Below are positions 50,978 through 63,964 of a DNA stretch of 64,000 nucleotides, in pieces; position 1 is the first letter of the stretch; every line of letters begins with the position of its first letter. Origin of the DNA: an uncultured Eubacteriales bacterium (GTDB taxonomy: Bacteria > Bacillota > Clostridia > Oscillospirales > Oscillospiraceae); contig ONVI01000016.1 in assembly GCA_900321275.1 (NCBI GenBank), positions 43,148 through 107,147 of the forward strand. Direction: 5' to 3'. The notes beneath the pieces were generated by a model. That model ran no database searches. It saw only the letters and a program-made list of their open reading frames with translations, and had not been told where the DNA came from. Position numbers and translations under genes: made by a program.

Positions 50978-51277
50978 TTATCCGACAAAAGCGGAATTGA
51001 CCCAACCGCTTCTGCCGCTTCTGGGATTGTACACGTAGACGTAGAGTTTGCCGTCGGGCCCGTAGGTGTAGCTGCCGACGATCTGCAGCGTCTGGCCGTT
51101 GTAGCTCTCGCTGCCGCGGATCTCATTGTTGTAATCATAGTTCGGCTGGCTTCTCAGGGCGAGATAACCCGTCTGAAGGCCGCGGACCGTGACCCAGTTG
51201 CCGGTGTTGGGGCCGCCGTAATTGCCGCCCGCAACGGTGTTCATTTCCTGATCGTTCATTTTCTCGATCTCAGACAT
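50978..51277 (-). CDS. Double-glycine-leader protein with bacterial SH3 domain
   Basis: This 99-residue protein begins MSEIEKMNDQEMNTVAGG. Counting back from the second Gly, M(-12), N(-11), E(-8), M(-7), V(-4), G(-2) and G(-1) fit the bacteriocin-type double-glycine leader that is cut by C39-peptidase ABC exporters. The rest, from about residue 19, is an SH3-like domain with YLALRSQPNYD, GQTLQIVGSY and GWVNSAFVG. There is no Sec signal, so the leader is probably the export signal for a wall-binding domain. No exporter gene lies nearby. AAAGGAGGAAC precedes the start. Function is inference. Confidence 0.8.
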   Translation of the reverse strand: MSEIEKMNDQEMNTVAGGNYGGPNTGNWVTVRGLQTGYLALRSQPNYDYNNEIRGSESYNGQTLQIVGSYTYGPDGKLYVYVYNPRSGRSGWVNSAFVG

Positions 51278-51364: not shown

Positions 51365-51390
51365 CGCCTCCGGGGCTTAAAAATACTTAA

Positions 51391-51414
51391 GACGCCGCCC
51401 GTTCGGGCGGCGTC
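51391..51414. terminator. Terminator after upp
   Basis: GACGCCGCCC pairs with GGGCGGCGTC around GTTC. On the reverse strand it is followed by TTAAGTATTTTT. Confidence 0.8.
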
Positions 51415-52145: not shown

Positions 52146-52250
52146 TGAAAACTTGCGGCAAACGCCAAAAAAGTGTCACGCTGCGGGAAAAGGAGGGCAT
52201 GACATGGCACCATAAAGGCCGATCTTAAGAATTATTCATGCCCCGCGCTC

Positions 52251-52279
52251 TGTTCAACCTGTTCCCCGTATGCTATAAT
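52251..52279 (+). promoter_or_regulatory. Putative promoter of the LysM miniprotein
   Basis: TATAAT (52274-52279) is a consensus -10 about 50 bases before the start. The -35, TGTTCA at 17-base spacing, is weak. Confidence 0.5.
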
Positions 52280-52330
52280 ACTGACGTAATTTGAAACAAA
52301 CCTTGCGAAATCTTGAAAGGAGAACATAAA

Positions 52331-52558
52331 ATGAGCGATCAAAAGATCAGGAGCCTGGACGACGGCGAACTGCTCAAAGTCAGCGGCGGCACGTACAACG
52401 GCCCCGTTTTCGTCTATGTCATGAAGGAGGGCGACACGCTGGAAAGCGTTGCCGCGCGTTATCACACCACTGCGAGCGTTCTGGCTGAGCTGAACAACAT
52501 CAGCAACCCCGCCATCCCGATCACCGGACGGCAGATCTACGTCCCGTCCAATTTCTGA
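52331..52558 (+). CDS. Double-glycine-leader protein with LysM domain
   Basis: The 75-residue protein begins MSDQKIRSLDDGELLKVSGG. L(-12), D(-11), E(-8), L(-7), V(-4), G(-2) and G(-1) match the double-glycine leader consensus as well as the SH3 protein 1 kb away does. The rest is one LysM domain: YVMKEGDTLESVAARYHTTA then SVLAELNNISNPAIPITGRQIYVP in sequence, which binds N-acetylglucosamine in peptidoglycan. A wall-binding domain without a Sec signal needs an export route, which the leader would provide. AAAGGAGAACAT precedes the ATG. It has its own terminator and no exporter or immunity gene beside it. Role inferred. Confidence 0.85.
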   Translation: MSDQKIRSLDDGELLKVSGGTYNGPVFVYVMKEGDTLESVAARYHTTASVLAELNNISNPAIPITGRQIYVPSNF

Positions 52559-52573
52559 GGAACAGATAACAAC

Positions 52574-52595
52574 GCGCCGCGGAAAACCGCGGCGC
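52574..52595. terminator. Terminator between LysM miniprotein and tsaB
   Basis: GCGCCGCGG pairs with CCGCGGCGC around AAAA, followed by ATTTCTT. It serves two convergent genes. Confidence 0.75.
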
Positions 52596-56388: not shown

Positions 56389-59300
56389 TTAGCGGGCGTT
56401 GTATTGCCTGGCAGCGTCATAGTATCGGTATAGGGATGCCACCGCTGCCTGCGCGGACGGAGAAAGGTTGTCGGGATTTGCAAGCGCCTTATAGACATAC
56501 GAGAGGGCCGACACGCTGACCGTACAGTCTTTCCCGTCTGCGGTGATGACAACTTCATATTTGTCGCCGAGCTGTGTCGCCCGAATGCTCGGGATCACCA
56601 CCCGGTAGCGGCCGTCCGACATGCGGGTGACCTTCAGGGATTTGTTCCCAATTTTCGCGGTCGGGATGCCGCCCGCATAGTCGTCCCGCATTTCAAGATG
56701 GAGATAAATCGAGGTTTCGCTGTCCAGAACCAGAGCCTGTTTGACATTGATGATCGGCGAACCCTCCGTGATGTTTTTGACCATATCGTAGTCGGCGGTC
56801 TTGTTCTTGATCTCCGCGATCTGCTCGGCCGTAATCTTGTTCTCCTCCGGCATCACCCTATGCTTTCCGTTTTCACCGAGAGTCCACTGATTGGCCTCCG
56901 ACAGGAAGGGCTGCATGTAGTGCCCGAAGTCCGCCAGCGCATCGACCATGGCCTTGACTTTGCCGACATACTCGGGGCCCGTTTTGATCTTCTCCACATA
57001 GTGCGCCACAGAGTAGATCTGTGAGACGGTCCTGTCGTCGCCGTAATGGAAGGCGGCGTTAACGGTGTCGGCCATCTCCGCGACGTTGATCATACAGGTG
57101 AAGCCATAGTATTTGCCGTTCTGGCTTTTGAAATTCGGATTATAGGCCGCGGTATGGATGCGGCTGCTGTCGATGCCGCCGATGGTAAAGATCATCTCGC
57201 TCTTGCTGTAGTCCACGCCTTCGATCGTCGGAAGATCCATGAAGAAGTTTATGGCGATCCGTTCACCGAGAGCCAGGGAGTGTGTCCGGAAGACAGGCAC
57301 CGTCCCCTCGGCCCACCTGGCTTTCAGGGTGAGGTTCCTGTTTACCGGTGTGTAGAAGCTGAACTCCTCACCGTTGAGCTCCCAGCGGATGAAGGTGTAA
57401 CCCTGCTTTGTCGGCATCTCCGGTTCTGCAGCGGTTTTGCCGACGAAGACCGTCTGGGCAGCGACGGCGCTGCCGCCGTCGGTGTCGAAGGTGACGGTAA
57501 GCTGCTCCGCCCACTGAGCCGTCACTGTGGCGTCGCCGGTGATCTTGACAAGGTCGCCGGGCTGCTTGCCTGTCGCTGTGGTCTGGCCGCCGACGGAAAT
57601 ATTCCAGCCTGTAAAGCCCTTCCCTGCGGGAGCGGTGAAGCGGCAATCGGGCAGCATATACTGCTCGTTTCGCATTATTTTTTCGCTGCCCATGTTCCCT
57701 GTGCCGCCGTTTGCATCAAAGCTGATAGCGGCCGGCAAACAGAGCTCTGCCTCGCCCTGTTCATTGATATGCACAATATAGGCGTCGTTGTCGCTTGTAA
57801 AGTTGATAACTTCGGCATTGTCCTTCAGGCCTTTGGTGAAGACGACGGGCTTGTCCGCCGTGGGCGCAACCTCGGTCGTGACGCCGATGAGGGTGCTTTG
57901 ATCGAGCTTGCCCGTCACGGTCAGGACCTTGTCCTTGCAGAGATAAACGTTGCAGGCCTTCATCGTCCCCGCCCTGTTGCCGGTGATGTTGATTTTGCCT
58001 GAAATCTCCATATCACCGGCCACATAGACGCCGCCGCCCTGATCGGTGGCATGGTTTCCGTTGATCGTGCCGCCCTTCATCTGGAAAAGCGCCTCGGAAT
58101 CCACATAGACACCGCCGCCCTTGCCGAGAAAGCTCGCCACGCCCGCAGCCTCGTTTGCCGTGATCGTGCCGCCGGTCATCAGGGTGTTGGTCTTATGGCC
58201 CACATAGACGCCGCCGCCGCAGGTTGCCATGTTTTCCTCGATCATGCCGGCTTTGAAGAAGAACATCGGCACGTTCCTGTCAAAAGCGCCGTCAAATGAT
58301 CCCGTGTAGACGCCGCCGCCCTGTCCGCCAACGCTCGTCGCGGACAGCACGGCTTTGTTGTTCAGGATGCTGCCGCCGTTGAGCACAAATCTGCCGCTTT
58401 CCATGACGCAGACAGCGCCGCCGTTGAAACCAATGGCGCTGCCGTTGACAACCCCGCCGTGCTGCTCCTTCTTGGCGGCAGAATCCATGATGGTCAGCGT
58501 ACCGGCAATGACTTCGAACACGTTGCCGCCGATCACTTCGGTAGTTGCACCCACGCCGAGACCCAGGCTTCGGTCGATGGTGCTGCCCTTGAGGTCAATG
58601 CCGAAATCGGAGGCGACCAACCGCAGCGTCGAATCTCCCCGCATGGCTTTTACAGTGCCTGCCAGCACCTCGGTTCCCGCCAGGGAGGGAGAAAGCATCT
58701 TGTCTCTGAGCTTGCTCCACTTGGACCTCCACTGCGCCGTTACCTCCGTATTGGCAAGAATCGCGACGGGCGTGCCCTCGGCCAGACCCTTTTTCGCGGC
58801 GTTGGGATCCGCGTTCGCAGGCTTGTTAATGGCGACACCGCCCATGGAAACCCGCCAGCCGTCGAAATCGTAATAGTCGCGCTTGAACGGGTTCATTCGG
58901 AGAACGTGCACTTCTCCGAAGGGTACAGCCTCGGTTATGGGAGTGATGCCCTTCTCCGGGTCTTCGTCGGCCGCTGTCGTTGTTTTTTTGTATTCAACCG
59001 TGCATTCCCAATCACTGCTGAGATCGAGATCATCCTTGATCTCTATCCTCAATTTTCCGTCCTGGAAGATGCGGGCCTTGTCAAAGGGCTTCCAGCCGCC
59101 GAATCTGTAGAACCGTACGAGCGTACCCCAGACACCGCCCGGCATGTCCGGCCTTTGGAGGCTGCCCGGCTGCCCCTGCTTGTGGGGAACGTTCTGAACC
59201 ACGCTCCGGGGTTCTTCCGCGGGGATCTTCTGAAGCTCCTCGAGAATTGCCTTTGCCGCATCGTTGTCCGCCGCGGCCTGAAGCGTCTCGATGATCTTGT

Positions 59301-62300
59301 CGAGGCCCGAGTGCAGGGTCACCTTATAGGGCGCGACCTCTTTGGTCTCGGAGCTGCCGTACTTTGTGACCGTGTATTTCCAGGTCTGCGTTTCCTCCTC
59401 CAGCATAGCGGTGGAATTGACCTTCTCCGTGATCGTGGTACCGCATTTCTTGCATGCGGCTGTCATTGTGGCAGACTCGTAGGTCGCCTCGTCCCAGACC
59501 CAGGTCTGCACCACATATTCCTCGTGCTTGCAGTTCTTCTGCTCGGTCTTTTGCTGTTCGCCCGGGTTGGTGGGAGTAGATTCCAGATCATTTTTGCTCT
59601 TTCTGTCGACGATAAATTTGATCCCAAAGCCGAGACCGAGGGTGATGAGGCCCCCTAACGCAAGCTTCGCGAGAGTAGCGCTCGAAACGCCTATGGAGCT
59701 GGCGGCGCCTCCGGCCCCGGCCCCGGCGACAAACGCGATCGGGGCGCCGTTTCCGCCTCCGCCGCTTCCGCTTCCGCTGCCTTGCTGGCCGCCGCCGTTT
59801 TCACCTTCATAGGATTCGACGTTGTCGTAGCTTACCTCGCTGCCGCTGCTCGGGTTGGTATTGTCCAGGATCTCCACGCCATTGCCGATTTCCAGCGTAC
59901 CGCCCTGGCCGATATAGGTGCCGCCGCCCTTCAGCGCTTTGTTGCCGACGAAATAGACAAGACCGCCGACGGCGCCGAGACCGAGGCCGACGCCCCAATA
60001 GATGCTGCTGTTGCTGTTGGTGCTTACCTTGGCGCCATCGTCGATATAGGCGGCGCCGCCCTTGGCAGCGGACGTGTTGCCGGAGATGCTGATATTGGCA
60101 ACCAGGAGCGTCGAGGAGGTTCCGAGATAGAAGCCGCCGCCGTTGCCGGTGTTGTTGCCGCCGGTGACCGCGCCGCCGTTGCCGAAGAGGTTGAGCGTGG
60201 ATCTCTCGCCCAGAGAGAAAACGCAGCCGTCGTCCTTTGCCCCGGCCTCCGCAAGGCCGCGGTCAAGCGTGTAGCCGTCAAGATTCAGAGAGGCCGTCTT
60301 ATTGGCGGGAATTTTCAGGCTTCCCTCGTCGTCAGCGGCCGTGATGCTGTTGAGCAGCTTAAAGGCCTGGCCGGCCTCCAGCGCTTTGCTCACCTCGGCC
60401 CAAGTGGATTCCCACTGCGCGACAAAGACCTTGTCCCCGCTCAGCGTACAGCTCTCGCCCGGCGCATAATCCGTGCCGTCCTGATCCTGCCAGCCTTTTA
60501 TCACCGCACCCGCCGGAGCGGCGAAACCGTCCGCTGCCGCGGGCAGCGTATAGCTGCTGCCGGTCACCGGCACCGTCTTATCACTGCCGCCGCCGAGCCC
60601 CGCCTTCAGTGTGACCTGGTAGACGTTATCCTTGTGAGTGTATTCGATGCCCTCAAATGTCGCCTTCGCGGTCTTGACGGTCTGATTGCCTTCGGTCTGC
60701 TCTGTCACCGTCGCCTGGATGATTTGCTCTTTGCCGCATCCGGGCTTCACGCACCTGACGGTGATGGTCGGCGGAACACTGTCCCAATTCGTATTCTTTA
60801 TGGCGTATTCATGGTCGGTATACACCACCGTATACCGCCCGCCGTGCGTATCCTCGCCCTCGCCGAGCGCCGAGGCATGCAGCGCGCTGATCCGGACATT
60901 GCCCGCAAACGCGCTGTCCGCGATGCTGATTTTTCGCTCCGCGCTCAGTGTCAGCTCCGTGACGCCGCTGCCGAGGAAAGCGTCGGCGCCGATCTCCGTG
61001 AGATTCGACGTGCTGCCGCCGAAGGTTTTGAGATTGCTCAAGCCCTTAAAGGCATTCGCCGCCACCCTCTGGGTATTCTCTGTGACAGTAACGGTGACCG
61101 CCATGCCGGCGGGATTATCAAACAGCGCATGCTCGCCGTCGCCGATCTGCGTGAGAGCATTGCCGTCAAAGGTCTTCGGCAGGACAAGGTTCGTCGATGT
61201 CTCAAAGCCGCCGGTATAGCCGGTGATGACATTGCCCCGGAAGCTGAAATACATGACCGGACGGACAGTGCCTGTCACCGCTCCCACGCTGCCGTCTTCG
61301 GCCGCGGCGAGGAGCCAGGTTTTATTGTCCTCCCCCTCGAAGCTGTAATAAGCCTCCGTGCCGGGAATGTAGGCGCCCTCATCGTCGATGCGCGGCTCGA
61401 CCCGCGCGTGGCTTGTCAGGGTGCCGCCGATCCTGTGTGTATCGGTATACGTTTTCCCGTCATGGGTCACAGTGGCCGTATATTCGAGCTTTTGCTGCTC
61501 GCTGTTAAAGACGGGGCCGGATATGACCGCGTCCTCGGTCCACAATACTTCATGGCAGCTCTGGCAGTGAATCTCGGCTTTAGCCGCGCCGGCCCTCCAG
61601 GTCCACACGGGCTGCTGCAGGAAGTGATGCTCGATTTCCACGAGGATCGCGCCGTTCCTGCTGTAGGGGGTTCCGCCGTTGTCGGCAAAGAAGTAGGTAT
61701 CGGCGGAATCTGCCTGCGTGTAGCCCACCGCCGCGACAACGTCCGCCGCTGTGTCAAGGCCGATGTACGCGTCGTCGGTAAAGCTGCCGTTTACGGTGAT
61801 CTTCACCCCGCCTGTGAGAGCGACGTCCGATGGCGTATAGCTCTCCTGCTCCGTGTCAGGGTTTGTCACAATATAGTTGTCGGTGACTTCGGGGCCGCGG
61901 GACATTTTAAGCGTCGAGGCAGCACAGGCGTAAATACCGCCGCCGCTGCCCGCGGCGGTATTGCTGTAGATCTTGCCGCCGGTGAAGGTAAAGACTGCGC
62001 CGTCGGCAAGGAAGATGCCGCCGCCGTTTTTGGCCTCGTTGGCAGCGACGATGCCGCCGCTCATGTTCAGGGTTCCTCCGGAGGCCACGAAGATGCCGCC
62101 GCCGTTGCCGAGACTTTTGCTGCCGACGATACTGCCGCCGACCAGGTTGAGCGTACCCTGAACGATGATCGCGCCGCCGTCATAGTAGTTATTGCCGCCG
62201 AGGATCATGCCGGACTGCTCTTTGCTGCTGTCGATAATGGTGAGAGTCGAGCCGCTTGGGACTGTCAGGATATTGCCGGGTATGCCGGACATGTAAGAGA

Positions 62301-63822
62301 TGCGCTCAATGACATGGCCGTTGAGGTCGATGGTCAGGTTTTTACCCCCTGCGATGATCAGATGACCCTCCCGGGCGGAATCGTAGTCGAATTCCAAAGT
62401 GATCGTTTCGCCGTCATTCGCCGTGTAGATCCGCTTTTGCAGCTCTGTCCCGGACGTGATCGTCCACACGGCCTCAAACTCGAGGTTGCTTCTGACATTC
62501 TCAAACGTCTTGCCGGGCTGCAGTTCCGTATCGGTTCCCTTCTGCTTCCAGCACTTGAAAACTTTCCCGTCAGGCGCCATGAGGATGTCCCCGTCGGGCA
62601 GGGTATAGGTCCCCTTCGGGCTCACATATTCAATCGCATACTCGTCATTCCCGCTCTCCGGGTAGGCGAAAAACAGCCTTGCTTCATAGCATTTGGTCAC
62701 TTCAAGCTGCCCTGCGTTACTGAGCCTGCAGTAGTAGCAGTCGCTTTCCGTGAACGCACCTGTCTTCGAATCGTAGGTGCCGCAAATCGTGAACTGATCG
62801 GCCGAGGCTGTAAAGTCGCCCTGCGAGAGGACCTTCCACCAGTCAGGCTTGTCGGGAGGCTCCTCTACGGCCAGGTTGTAATTCCCGTAAAGCTTTGACT
62901 CTACCGAAATGGAGGCATGGTTGCTCAGTTCAATTCGCTCCCTGATCGCCGGGCCGTCCCGGAGGATGATTGTGCCGTTGTTGACGCGCAGAATGTTCAT
63001 CTCGGGGTTGCTGTATAGGTAGTGAAACATAACCAAAGCGCCGCCGTCAATCACCATACCGACCTCGGGATGCTCAAAGTGGACGCCGGTCACACTGCAG
63101 TAGTTATTGCCTGTCACCTTCACATTGCAGACCCTGCCGCCTACAATCGAGCCGTGCTGGCTGTAGATTGATGCGTTGTTCAGCTCCAGGACATAGTCCG
63201 CGTCCAGCGCTGAGCCGTCGAGGGTGTACCCGTTCAGATCCAGCCCCGAGCAGTTGGTCAGCAGCAGCGGCTTATCATCAGCCGTCGCCGTGACAGGCCC
63301 GCCCAGCTTCAGCCGTTTGCCGTTGAGGCTATCGAGAACTTCCTGGAGTTCACGCCAGTTGCCTAAACTGTACCATACTTCTCCCGCATCGAAGGTCTCG
63401 CTTTCGGAAAGGTCATAGATGGACGTTTCCTCTTTGTTCTCCTCCGTATCCCCGGGCGCCGCCTCTTCGTCTTCTTCGGTATCCCCGTTCTCTGCCGGGG
63501 ACGCCGGGACCTGCTCTGGCTCGGGTTCCGCGAAGGCGGGCTTGTCCGGCACCATCTCCTCAAGGATGGGCTGTTCCTCTTCCGCGAATTCTTCAAAGAA
63601 CAGCTCTTGGTCCTGCACCGCATCATCCGGGGACACAAAAGCATTCTCCTCGATGCTGTCCCGCGCCGCTTCCTCATCCCGGAAGCCGGCGTCTTCGACA
63701 AAGCCCTTGTCCGCATATTCCTGTGCAAACGCCTCAATGTTCACACAGCTCATGAGCATGACGAAAGCCAGCAACAGAGATATTCCTCTTCTCCAACTCT
63801 TTACCGAACCGTTTTTCACCAT
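56389..63822 (-). CDS. Giant secreted beta-helix adhesin-like protein
   Basis: The 2477-residue protein starts with a signal peptide (ISLLLAFVMLMSCVNIEAFA) and a Glu/Pro-rich acidic stretch. Then come beta-helix clusters with GGGIF/GGGVYV turns near 575-635, 1200-1320 and 1765-1940. A BspA-like leucine-rich region lies near 875-975, Cys-pair modules (CQSCHE, CKKCG) lie between, and InlB-type repeats (VTFDTDGGSAVAAQTV) lie near 2030-2175. A Gly/Ser linker and hydrophobic LALGGLITLGLGFGIKFIVD segment near 1385-1405 lies mid-chain, like an internalised membrane anchor. No LPxTG was seen. The ATG at 63822 has AAAGGTG at a long spacing. Confidence 0.85.
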   Translation of the reverse strand: MVKNGSVKSWRRGISLLLAFVMLMSCVNIEAFAQEYADKGFVEDAGFRDEEAARDSIEENAFVSPDDAVQDQELFFEEFAEEEQPILEEMVPDKPAFAEPEPEQVPASPAENGDTEEDEEAAPGDTEENKEETSIYDLSESETFDAGEVWYSLGNWRELQEVLDSLNGKRLKLGGPVTATADDKPLLLTNCSGLDLNGYTLDGSALDADYVLELNNASIYSQHGSIVGGRVCNVKVTGNNYCSVTGVHFEHPEVGMVIDGGALVMFHYLYSNPEMNILRVNNGTIILRDGPAIRERIELSNHASISVESKLYGNYNLAVEEPPDKPDWWKVLSQGDFTASADQFTICGTYDSKTGAFTESDCYYCRLSNAGQLEVTKCYEARLFFAYPESGNDEYAIEYVSPKGTYTLPDGDILMAPDGKVFKCWKQKGTDTELQPGKTFENVRSNLEFEAVWTITSGTELQKRIYTANDGETITLEFDYDSAREGHLIIAGGKNLTIDLNGHVIERISYMSGIPGNILTVPSGSTLTIIDSSKEQSGMILGGNNYYDGGAIIVQGTLNLVGGSIVGSKSLGNGGGIFVASGGTLNMSGGIVAANEAKNGGGIFLADGAVFTFTGGKIYSNTAAGSGGGIYACAASTLKMSRGPEVTDNYIVTNPDTEQESYTPSDVALTGGVKITVNGSFTDDAYIGLDTAADVVAAVGYTQADSADTYFFADNGGTPYSRNGAILVEIEHHFLQQPVWTWRAGAAKAEIHCQSCHEVLWTEDAVISGPVFNSEQQKLEYTATVTHDGKTYTDTHRIGGTLTSHARVEPRIDDEGAYIPGTEAYYSFEGEDNKTWLLAAAEDGSVGAVTGTVRPVMYFSFRGNVITGYTGGFETSTNLVLPKTFDGNALTQIGDGEHALFDNPAGMAVTVTVTENTQRVAANAFKGLSNLKTFGGSTSNLTEIGADAFLGSGVTELTLSAERKISIADSAFAGNVRISALHASALGEGEDTHGGRYTVVYTDHEYAIKNTNWDSVPPTITVRCVKPGCGKEQIIQATVTEQTEGNQTVKTAKATFEGIEYTHKDNVYQVTLKAGLGGGSDKTVPVTGSSYTLPAAADGFAAPAGAVIKGWQDQDGTDYAPGESCTLSGDKVFVAQWESTWAEVSKALEAGQAFKLLNSITAADDEGSLKIPANKTASLNLDGYTLDRGLAEAGAKDDGCVFSLGERSTLNLFGNGGAVTGGNNTGNGGGFYLGTSSTLLVANISISGNTSAAKGGAAYIDDGAKVSTNSNSSIYWGVGLGLGAVGGLVYFVGNKALKGGGTYIGQGGTLEIGNGVEILDNTNPSSGSEVSYDNVESYEGENGGGQQGSGSGSGGGGNGAPIAFVAGAGAGGAASSIGVSSATLAKLALGGLITLGLGFGIKFIVDRKSKNDLESTPTNPGEQQKTEQKNCKHEEYVVQTWVWDEATYESATMTAACKKCGTTITEKVNSTAMLEEETQTWKYTVTKYGSSETKEVAPYKVTLHSGLDKIIETLQAAADNDAAKAILEELQKIPAEEPRSVVQNVPHKQGQPGSLQRPDMPGGVWGTLVRFYRFGGWKPFDKARIFQDGKLRIEIKDDLDLSSDWECTVEYKKTTTAADEDPEKGITPITEAVPFGEVHVLRMNPFKRDYYDFDGWRVSMGGVAINKPANADPNAAKKGLAEGTPVAILANTEVTAQWRSKWSKLRDKMLSPSLAGTEVLAGTVKAMRGDSTLRLVASDFGIDLKGSTIDRSLGLGVGATTEVIGGNVFEVIAGTLTIMDSAAKKEQHGGVVNGSAIGFNGGAVCVMESGRFVLNGGSILNNKAVLSATSVGGQGGGVYTGSFDGAFDRNVPMFFFKAGMIEENMATCGGGVYVGHKTNTLMTGGTITANEAAGVASFLGKGGGVYVDSEALFQMKGGTINGNHATDQGGGVYVAGDMEISGKINITGNRAGTMKACNVYLCKDKVLTVTGKLDQSTLIGVTTEVAPTADKPVVFTKGLKDNAEVINFTSDNDAYIVHINEQGEAELCLPAAISFDANGGTGNMGSEKIMRNEQYMLPDCRFTAPAGKGFTGWNISVGGQTTATGKQPGDLVKITGDATVTAQWAEQLTVTFDTDGGSAVAAQTVFVGKTAAEPEMPTKQGYTFIRWELNGEEFSFYTPVNRNLTLKARWAEGTVPVFRTHSLALGERIAINFFMDLPTIEGVDYSKSEMIFTIGGIDSSRIHTAAYNPNFKSQNGKYYGFTCMINVAEMADTVNAAFHYGDDRTVSQIYSVAHYVEKIKTGPEYVGKVKAMVDALADFGHYMQPFLSEANQWTLGENGKHRVMPEENKITAEQIAEIKNKTADYDMVKNITEGSPIINVKQALVLDSETSIYLHLEMRDDYAGGIPTAKIGNKSLKVTRMSDGRYRVVIPSIRATQLGDKYEVVITADGKDCTVSVSALSYVYKALANPDNLSPSAQAAVASLYRYYDAARQYNAR

Positions 63823-63964
63823 GGAACCAACCACACCTTTCTGCTATGAAAACACTAAGTCGGCGAAGTAACATTTTTTACCATTTTTACATATATATTA
63901 CGTAAGCGCACAATAAGCACCCGCCTACCAAGTGACCCACATTTATGAGACAATCTCCGAGAGA

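What the first reader, a model, noticed from the sequence alone, without database searches (positions are those of the whole stretch)
52331..52558. LysM domain behind a double-glycine export leader
A 75-residue protein joins a leader with the double-glycine consensus at -12, -8, -7, -4, -2 and -1 to a complete LysM domain. Leaders of this type normally serve bacteriocins and signalling peptides exported by C39-peptidase ABC transporters. A wall-binding cargo suggests a small protein that is secreted, trimmed and attached to peptidoglycan. It has its own promoter, ribosome site and terminator.
Basis: partly seen in the sequence, partly recalled or inferred. Interest (0 to 1): 0.82.

Follow-up and report, generated by a model that had tools for sequence, protein, structure and literature searches.

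The report
Bacteriocin-style export of bare wall-binding domains
A gut-type bacterium tags tiny wall-binding domains with the signal normally used to export bacteriocins, and in its genus these tagged proteins occur almost only where the matching cutting-and-exporting pump is present, which points to a little-known way of sending proteins to the cell wall.

Summary
Window 52331-52558 encodes 75 residues: a 20-residue leader matching the double-glycine consensus at -12, -8, -7, -4, -2 and -1, then one full LysM domain (Pfam E 2e-11). It is one of many. A second leader protein, with an SH3-like cargo, lies 1 kb away (50978-51277). The genome holds seven leader-LysM proteins, others with CW_7, PepSY and further cargo, and one complete C39 ABC exporter (NHLM type) beside a leader-CW_7 gene. 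Among 61 genomes of the genus, leader-LysM proteins occur in 32 of 36 with the exporter and 1 of 25 without (Fisher p 8e-12). LysM proteins of the window's clade lie in the exporter gene run of four named MAGs. A direct-repeat box has 27 sites in five genomes, 18 before leader genes, reversed-pattern control 0; the window gene itself lacks it. Best reading: the C39 pump cuts after GG and exports small domains that bind the producer's own peptidoglycan. The export route is well supported; cleavage, location and purpose are inferred. Closest known: Faecalibacterium MAM, a GG-leader envelope protein with unrelated cargo. New variant of a known kind.

The parts
52331..52558 (+). leader-LysM gene, 75 aa
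52331..52390 (+). 20-residue double-glycine leader (inferred C39 cleavage after G20)
   Evidence: residues 7-20 modelled with pLDDT under 50
52415..52546 (+). LysM domain, residues 29-72
   Evidence: Pfam PF01476 E 2e-11; best PDB matches are LysM chains
52316..52322 (+). ribosome-binding site AAAGGAG
   Evidence: read
52271..52279 (+). extended -10 TGCTATAAT, weak -35
   Evidence: read; not listed by the consensus scan
52224..52239 (+). class A operator-like site CTTAAGAATTATTCAT (3 mismatches to the palindrome CTTAAGAATTCTTAAG); a lead only
52574..52595 (+). intrinsic terminator stem-loop
50978..51277 (-). second double-glycine leader protein, 99 aa, SH3-like cargo; leader 51224-51277
51376..51391 (-). 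class A operator-like site upstream of the SH3-like gene (2 mismatches)

Best explanation
The 75-aa protein is a substrate of the genome's single NHLM-type C39 exporter. The leader docks in the C39 domain, is cut after Gly-20, and the 55-residue cargo, a bare LysM domain, is pumped out and binds glycan strands of the producer's own peptidoglycan. It is one item of a modular set in which the same leader is put on different small domains: LysM, SH3-like and two-repeat CW_7, which bind walls, plus PepSY, zinc-ribbon-like and unknown cargos. The wall binders decorate the wall and tune its turnover (occupying glycan sites, shielding them from autolysins or outside lysozyme). Shown by sequence: leader, cargo fold, exporter, co-occurrence, linkage in relatives, shared upstream boxes for part of the set. 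Inferred: cleavage, export, wall location, and the decorating or shielding role.
For: One complete C39 ABC exporter in the genome, with Q7, C13, H87 and D103 of the C39 part invariant in a 10-row alignment (their catalytic role is recalled). A leader-CW_7x2 gene lies upstream of STAS, HlyD-like and exporter genes. A leader profile from three proteins with different cargo finds five more leaders in the genome at E up to 0.05. In 250 family genomes, leader hits occur in 11 of 26 with the exporter against 8 of 224 without, p 8e-8; without the genus 6 of 21 against 8 of 224, p 4e-4. In 61 genus genomes, leader-LysM in 32 of 36 with and 1 of 25 without, p 8e-12 (the 25 and the four exporter genomes lacking leader-LysM were listed again); among those at least 90% complete, 12 of 15 against 1 of 9, p 0.0017. 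43 of 112 leader-LysM loci lie within 15 kb of an exporter, in 21 genomes. The window LysM groups (99/96 support) with LysM proteins in the exporter gene runs of L153, L155, L157, L158. 18 of 27 class B boxes precede leader genes.
Against: No cleavage, export or binding data. In the window genome the LysM gene is not linked to the exporter (contig C59 against C58) and lacks the class B box. G306 (93% complete) has leader-LysM proteins but no exporter over the cut-off, and G257 (65% complete) has leader-CW_7 without one. Four exporter-positive genus genomes (G286, G292, G297, G299) have no short leader-LysM at E up to 1e-5, and 15 of 26 exporter genomes of the family gave no leader hit at E 0.05. 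Zinc-ribbon-like, PepSY and Cys-rich cargos do not fit a purely wall-binding purpose; of the 63 exporter-linked leader proteins only 11 match LysM, 7 CW_7 and 4 SH3_3. The window SH3-like protein is below the Pfam SH3 cut-off, matches SH3 folds only weakly (best E 0.03), and weakly matches Bacteriocin_IIc over its N-terminal 38 residues, E 0.036, below cut-off.
Confidence: 0.78

Rival explanations
1. The leader-LysM is an antibacterial (class II bacteriocin-like) peptide that uses LysM to bind rival cell walls.
For: Same leader and exporter type as bacteriocins; small size; several variable paralogues per genome; a few set members weakly match bacteriocin or ComC profiles.
Against: The cargo is a LysM domain with no further part; the flanking genes look like upp and tsaB (recognised by eye), with no immunity-like gene recognised beside it; class B boxes also precede Sec-signal proteins.
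Confidence: 0.1
2. The cargo is a signalling or host-facing molecule: released LysM sequesters peptidoglycan or chitin fragments, as fungal LysM effectors do with chitin.
For: Top PDB matches of the model include fungal LysM effectors Ecp6 (4b8v) and a Zymoseptoria protein titled as protecting hyphae against chitinase (6q40), E 1.7e-3 and 4.2e-3; gut or rumen labels on many related MAG records.
Against: Fold matches to LysM are generic; CW_7 and SH3 siblings suggest attachment to the wall; no host data.
Confidence: 0.12
3. The leader-like N-terminus is a relic and the proteins stay in the cytoplasm.
For: No direct export data; G306 and G257 have leader proteins but no exporter found.
Against: The same leader stands on unrelated cargos and co-occurs tightly with the exporter.
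Confidence: 0.03

Closest known systems
MAM of Faecalibacterium duncaniae with its PCAT (PMC12184118; passages seen)
   Same: Non-bacteriocin protein with a GG leader of the same consensus, gene beside a C39 ABC transporter in most species of that genus, located in the envelope; its export is also an in silico inference
   Different: MAM is reported as restricted to its genus, helical, without known domain, with an MMMPAN leader motif; here the cargos are LysM, CW_7, SH3-like and PepSY domains, many per genome, scattered, with an exporter over the NHLM cut-off
NHLM export system and NHLP/Nif11 precursors (Haft et al. 2010, PMC2887384; abstract and section list seen)
   Same: Exporter scores over the NHLM_micro_ABC1 cut-off; GG cleavage motif
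   Different: NHLP leaders are long and related to nitrile hydratase; here the leader is about 20 residues; the HlyD-like protein is short (140 aa, 45.5 bits against a cut-off of 156.2)
Class II bacteriocins and ComC-type pheromones with GG leaders (general knowledge)
   Same: Leader consensus; C39 exporter
   Different: Cargo here is a wall-binding domain, not a short toxic or signalling peptide
Ordinary LysM proteins (autolysins, spore proteins; general knowledge)
   Same: LysM domain
   Different: Those join LysM to other domains; in the genus the other LysM hits listed lie in frames of 238 codons or more, apart from two weak short hits in G263 and G307; here LysM stands alone behind a GG leader

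Membership tests
Double-glycine (C39/PCAT) exported precursors | short N-terminal leader with GG at -2/-1 and hydrophobic -4, -7, -12 | tested here: met
   44 of 47 genus leaders meet -12, -7 and -4 as coded (rows were chosen by their leader)
Double-glycine (C39/PCAT) exported precursors | C39 ABC exporter in the genome | tested here: met
Double-glycine (C39/PCAT) exported precursors | cleavage after GG and export of the rest | not testable with these tools
   needs an enzyme assay or mass spectrometry
LysM domain proteins (PF01476) | profile match over cut-off, full length | tested here: met
   44.1 bits against 20.9, profile 1-43 of 43
LysM domain proteins (PF01476) | strand-helix-helix-strand fold | tested here: met
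   model strands 26-30 and 68-72, helices 37-43 and 48-54; best PDB matches LysM, though none reaches E 0.001
LysM domain proteins (PF01476) | binding of GlcNAc-containing glycan | not testable with these tools
   no assay
NHLM exporter system | ABC1 with C39 domain over the TIGR03796 cut-off | tested here: met
   928.2 bits against 853.3
NHLM exporter system | NHLP or Nif11 type leader on the substrate | tested here: not met
   window LysM and SH3-like proteins (E up to 1) and the C58 CW_7 protein (E up to 0.001) match no such NCBIfam model
Class II bacteriocin | match to a known bacteriocin family | tested here: not met
   none for the 75-aa protein at E up to 1 in Pfam or NCBIfam
MAM family | MMMPAN leader motif (from PMC12184118) | tested here: not met
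   leader begins MSDQKIR

The most novel reading that the evidence does not exclude
A dedicated, partly co-regulated secretome of bare wall-binding domains: gut Clostridia use a bacteriocin-type pump as a general export line that loads many interchangeable mini-domains (LysM, SH3, CW_7, with PepSY and others) onto their own peptidoglycan as a protein coat that controls wall turnover or shields the wall from host lysozyme, with operators resembling the WalR/PhoB direct-repeat type.
Probability: 0.4. Interest if true: 0.86.

Novelty: new variant of a known kind. Interest (0 to 1): 0.74.

Why it matters
GG leaders and C39 pumps are mostly read as marks of bacteriocins or pheromones, so genome mining would be expected to file such genes as bacteriocins or to miss them. 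Here the same route seems to carry single wall-binding domains, many per genome, in gut Clostridia. That would add a second way, besides Sec, to send small proteins to the wall, and makes a testable set (leaders, exporter, cargo, operators) for wall homeostasis in largely uncultured bacteria. It would also put MAM, the anti-inflammatory envelope protein of Faecalibacterium, into a wider setting.

Tried and rejected
A loose GG motif alone was rejected as evidence because shuffles give 1.13 per window against 3 observed. In the 80 exporter loci, 74 raw GG ORFs were found against 39 (AA), 32 (SS) and 1-15 for 17 other dipeptides; 11 low-scoring rows were dropped, leaving 63 in 33 loci, so the weakest rows may be chance. 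The class A palindrome is weak as a count (16 places against 12 for the reversed control in G000, 8 against 7 in G174) and was drawn from seven of those sites; only its position (7 of 16 in G000 and 3 of 8 in G174 about 75-105 bp upstream of leader genes) speaks for it; it also precedes an 80-aa ORF in both genomes that looks like IreB by eye. Class B was drawn from about 14 known upstream regions; four further leader genes not used to draw it turned up downstream of its sites (L233, L228, L234, L238). It has no site in G224 or G004. Of the other nine sites four precede clear Sec-type signal peptides (L230, L243, L245, L246, by eye) and five do not or are unclear. The two SH3-type cargos of the window genome are SH3-like by model or eye only. 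The tree used 28 rows: 18 of the 20 of A4 (L040 and L110 left out) and 10 of the 11 exporter-linked LysM proteins (L164 left out). The listing was capped; one search listed every match at E up to 1e-5 of the 25 exporter-negative genomes and of the four exporter-positive ones without leader-LysM: outside G306 the frames are 254-1347 codons, none short. Literature: ten searches, one of them on WalR (74) and one on MAM (25); judged by titles and abstract starts, none listed a GG-leader LysM, SH3 or CW_7 protein; passages seen in PMC12184118, PMC13289728 and PMC3482391 do not describe one. The library holds open-licence papers only and no preprints, so absence there is not proof.

Full report
What is there. 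Window 52331-52558 (+) encodes MSDQKIRSLDDGELLKVSGG followed by TYNGPVFVYVMKEGDTLESVAARYHTTASVLAELNNISNPAIPITGRQIYVPSNF. The leader fits the consensus I/L/V(-12)-x3-E(-8)-L(-7)-V(-4)-G-G (quoted in PMC12184118, passage) at every place. The cargo is one complete LysM domain. The model has a low-confidence leader and a strand-helix-helix-strand cargo (mean pLDDT 70.9); its best PDB matches are LysM chains, though none reaches E 0.001. The gene has a ribosome site and a strong terminator; the promoter is an extended -10 with a poor -35.

It is not alone. About 1 kb away on the other strand, 50978-51277 encodes a second leader protein (MSEIEKMNDQEMNTVAGG) with a beta-rich, SH3-like cargo. A homologue in genus member G174 (L109) is 65% identical, and 40-41% identical leader proteins lie near exporters of three Lachnospiraceae MAGs (L172, L176, L187). 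A 22-row leader profile gives 13 leaders at E up to 0.001 in the genome. Seven leader proteins there carry LysM; two carry CW_7-type repeats, one a PepSY-type domain, and the rest are SH3-like, zinc-ribbon-like or unknown by eye. Of 47 leader proteins collected from five genomes of the genus, 21 match LysM, 5 CW_7 and 2 PepSY in Pfam at E up to 0.01.

The exporter. The genome has one complete C39 ABC transporter (the only other C39 hit at E up to 1 is in a 280-codon frame, too short for one). It scores over the NHLM_micro_ABC1 cut-off. The gene order is leader-CW_7x2, STAS, short HlyD-like, ABC1 with C39, a second ABC protein (358 bits to the same profile, below its cut-off), DUF218. In genus member G109 two leader-LysM genes and a leader-CW_7 gene lie on the same strand just upstream of a STAS-like, HlyD-like and exporter gene run, and a dCache-HAMP-SpoIIE-HATPase protein precedes them, which with STAS suggests partner-switching control (inference).

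Co-occurrence. In 250 family genomes the leader profile (E up to 0.05) hits 11 of 26 genomes with the exporter and 8 of 224 without; about 11 would be expected by chance among 224 at that E-value. The sharper test is inside the genus: of 61 genomes, own included, 36 have the exporter over its cut-off; leaders at E 0.001 occur in 29 of 36 against 1 of 25 (G257), and leader-LysM proteins in 32 of 36 against 1 of 25 (G306). A rerun listing every match of the 25 and of the four exporter genomes without leader-LysM found, outside G306, only LysM in frames of 254 codons or more. Among genomes at least 90% complete the counts are 12 of 15 and 1 of 9 (hand count, test). The 112 leader-LysM loci counted lie in frames of at most 205 codons; 111 align from profile column 6 or earlier, inside the leader, and one from column 18. 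I did not read GG in all 112. Two weaker short hits (G263 C26, G307 C94) were left out; both genomes count as positive without them. 43 of the 112 lie within 15 kb of an exporter.

Linkage in named genomes. In those loci 63 leader ORFs passed the leader score (33 of 80 loci); 11 match LysM (7 loci), 7 CW_7, 4 SH3_3 and 1 PepSY. In L153, L155, L157 and L158 a LysM gene of the window's type lies on the same strand 0.06-1.9 kb after the second ABC gene and directly before a 480-500-aa protein (DUF218 in L153, the one tested). A tree of cargo alone, 28 rows, puts the window LysM in one clade (99/96) with these four and with proteins of G224 and G174.

Upstream boxes. At least ten of the 14 own-genome leader genes looked at are followed by terminator-like hairpins (by eye). 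Two box types recur. Class B is a direct repeat TGTGAY-N5-TGYGAYR with 11-bp period: 7, 16 and 4 sites in G000, G174 and G109, none in G224 and G004, none for the reversed pattern in any of the five; 18 of 27 precede leader genes. It resembles the WalR box TGTWAH-N5-TGTWAH and the PhoB box quoted in PMC4168254 (passages), but G stands for W, so the regulator is unknown. Class A, a CTTAAG-N4-CTTAAG-like palindrome, lies upstream of the window LysM gene, the window SH3-like gene and the exporter-side CW_7 gene; its count is hardly above control, so it is a lead only.

How it most likely works. The leader is recognised and cut by the C39 domain, the ABC part pumps out the remainder, and the small domain attaches non-covalently to peptidoglycan. 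Cargos of the genus set run from about 14 to 126 residues, which should suit such pumps (MAM's cargo, residues 22-135 in PMC12184118, is 114). LysM, CW_7 and SH3 binding of walls is general knowledge of those families. The purpose, wall coating and tuning of turnover or shielding, is inference.

Known or new. GG-leader export of a non-bacteriocin envelope protein has been proposed for MAM of Faecalibacterium. Leader-tagged LysM, SH3 and CW_7 domains as a multi-gene set were not found in the searches of an open-licence library. I therefore call it a new variant of a known kind.

Noticed in passing
window 50978-51277 (-): Second double-glycine leader protein with SH3-like cargo, about 1 kb from the LysM gene
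   Followed up: yes
L035 4876-5142 (-), L108 764-1015 (+), L168 12553-12819 (+): Double-glycine leaders on PepSY-type domains, an unusual cargo for a C39 exporter
   Followed up: partly
L132 843-2409 (-): Array of leader-tagged Cys-rich small proteins in another genus of the family (G216, 18 leader hits)
   Followed up: no
L230, L243, L245, L246: Class B direct-repeat boxes also precede Sec-signal proteins, so one regulon may span two export routes
   Followed up: partly
L258, L261: Class A palindrome conserved upstream of an 80-aa protein that looks like IreB by eye
   Followed up: no
L044 4250-6970 (-) and 2608-2907 (-): dCache-HAMP-SpoIIE-HATPase protein and a STAS-like protein in the exporter gene run, suggesting partner-switching control
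   Followed up: partly
L153 12627-14093 (+); L042 6960-7697 (-): DUF218 protein beside the leader-LysM gene in L153 (Pfam hit); a similar-looking protein near it in G174, by eye
   Followed up: partly
window 56389-63834 (-): 2481-aa secreted-looking protein, long and repeat-rich, with a Gly-rich membrane-like stretch in the middle
   Followed up: no
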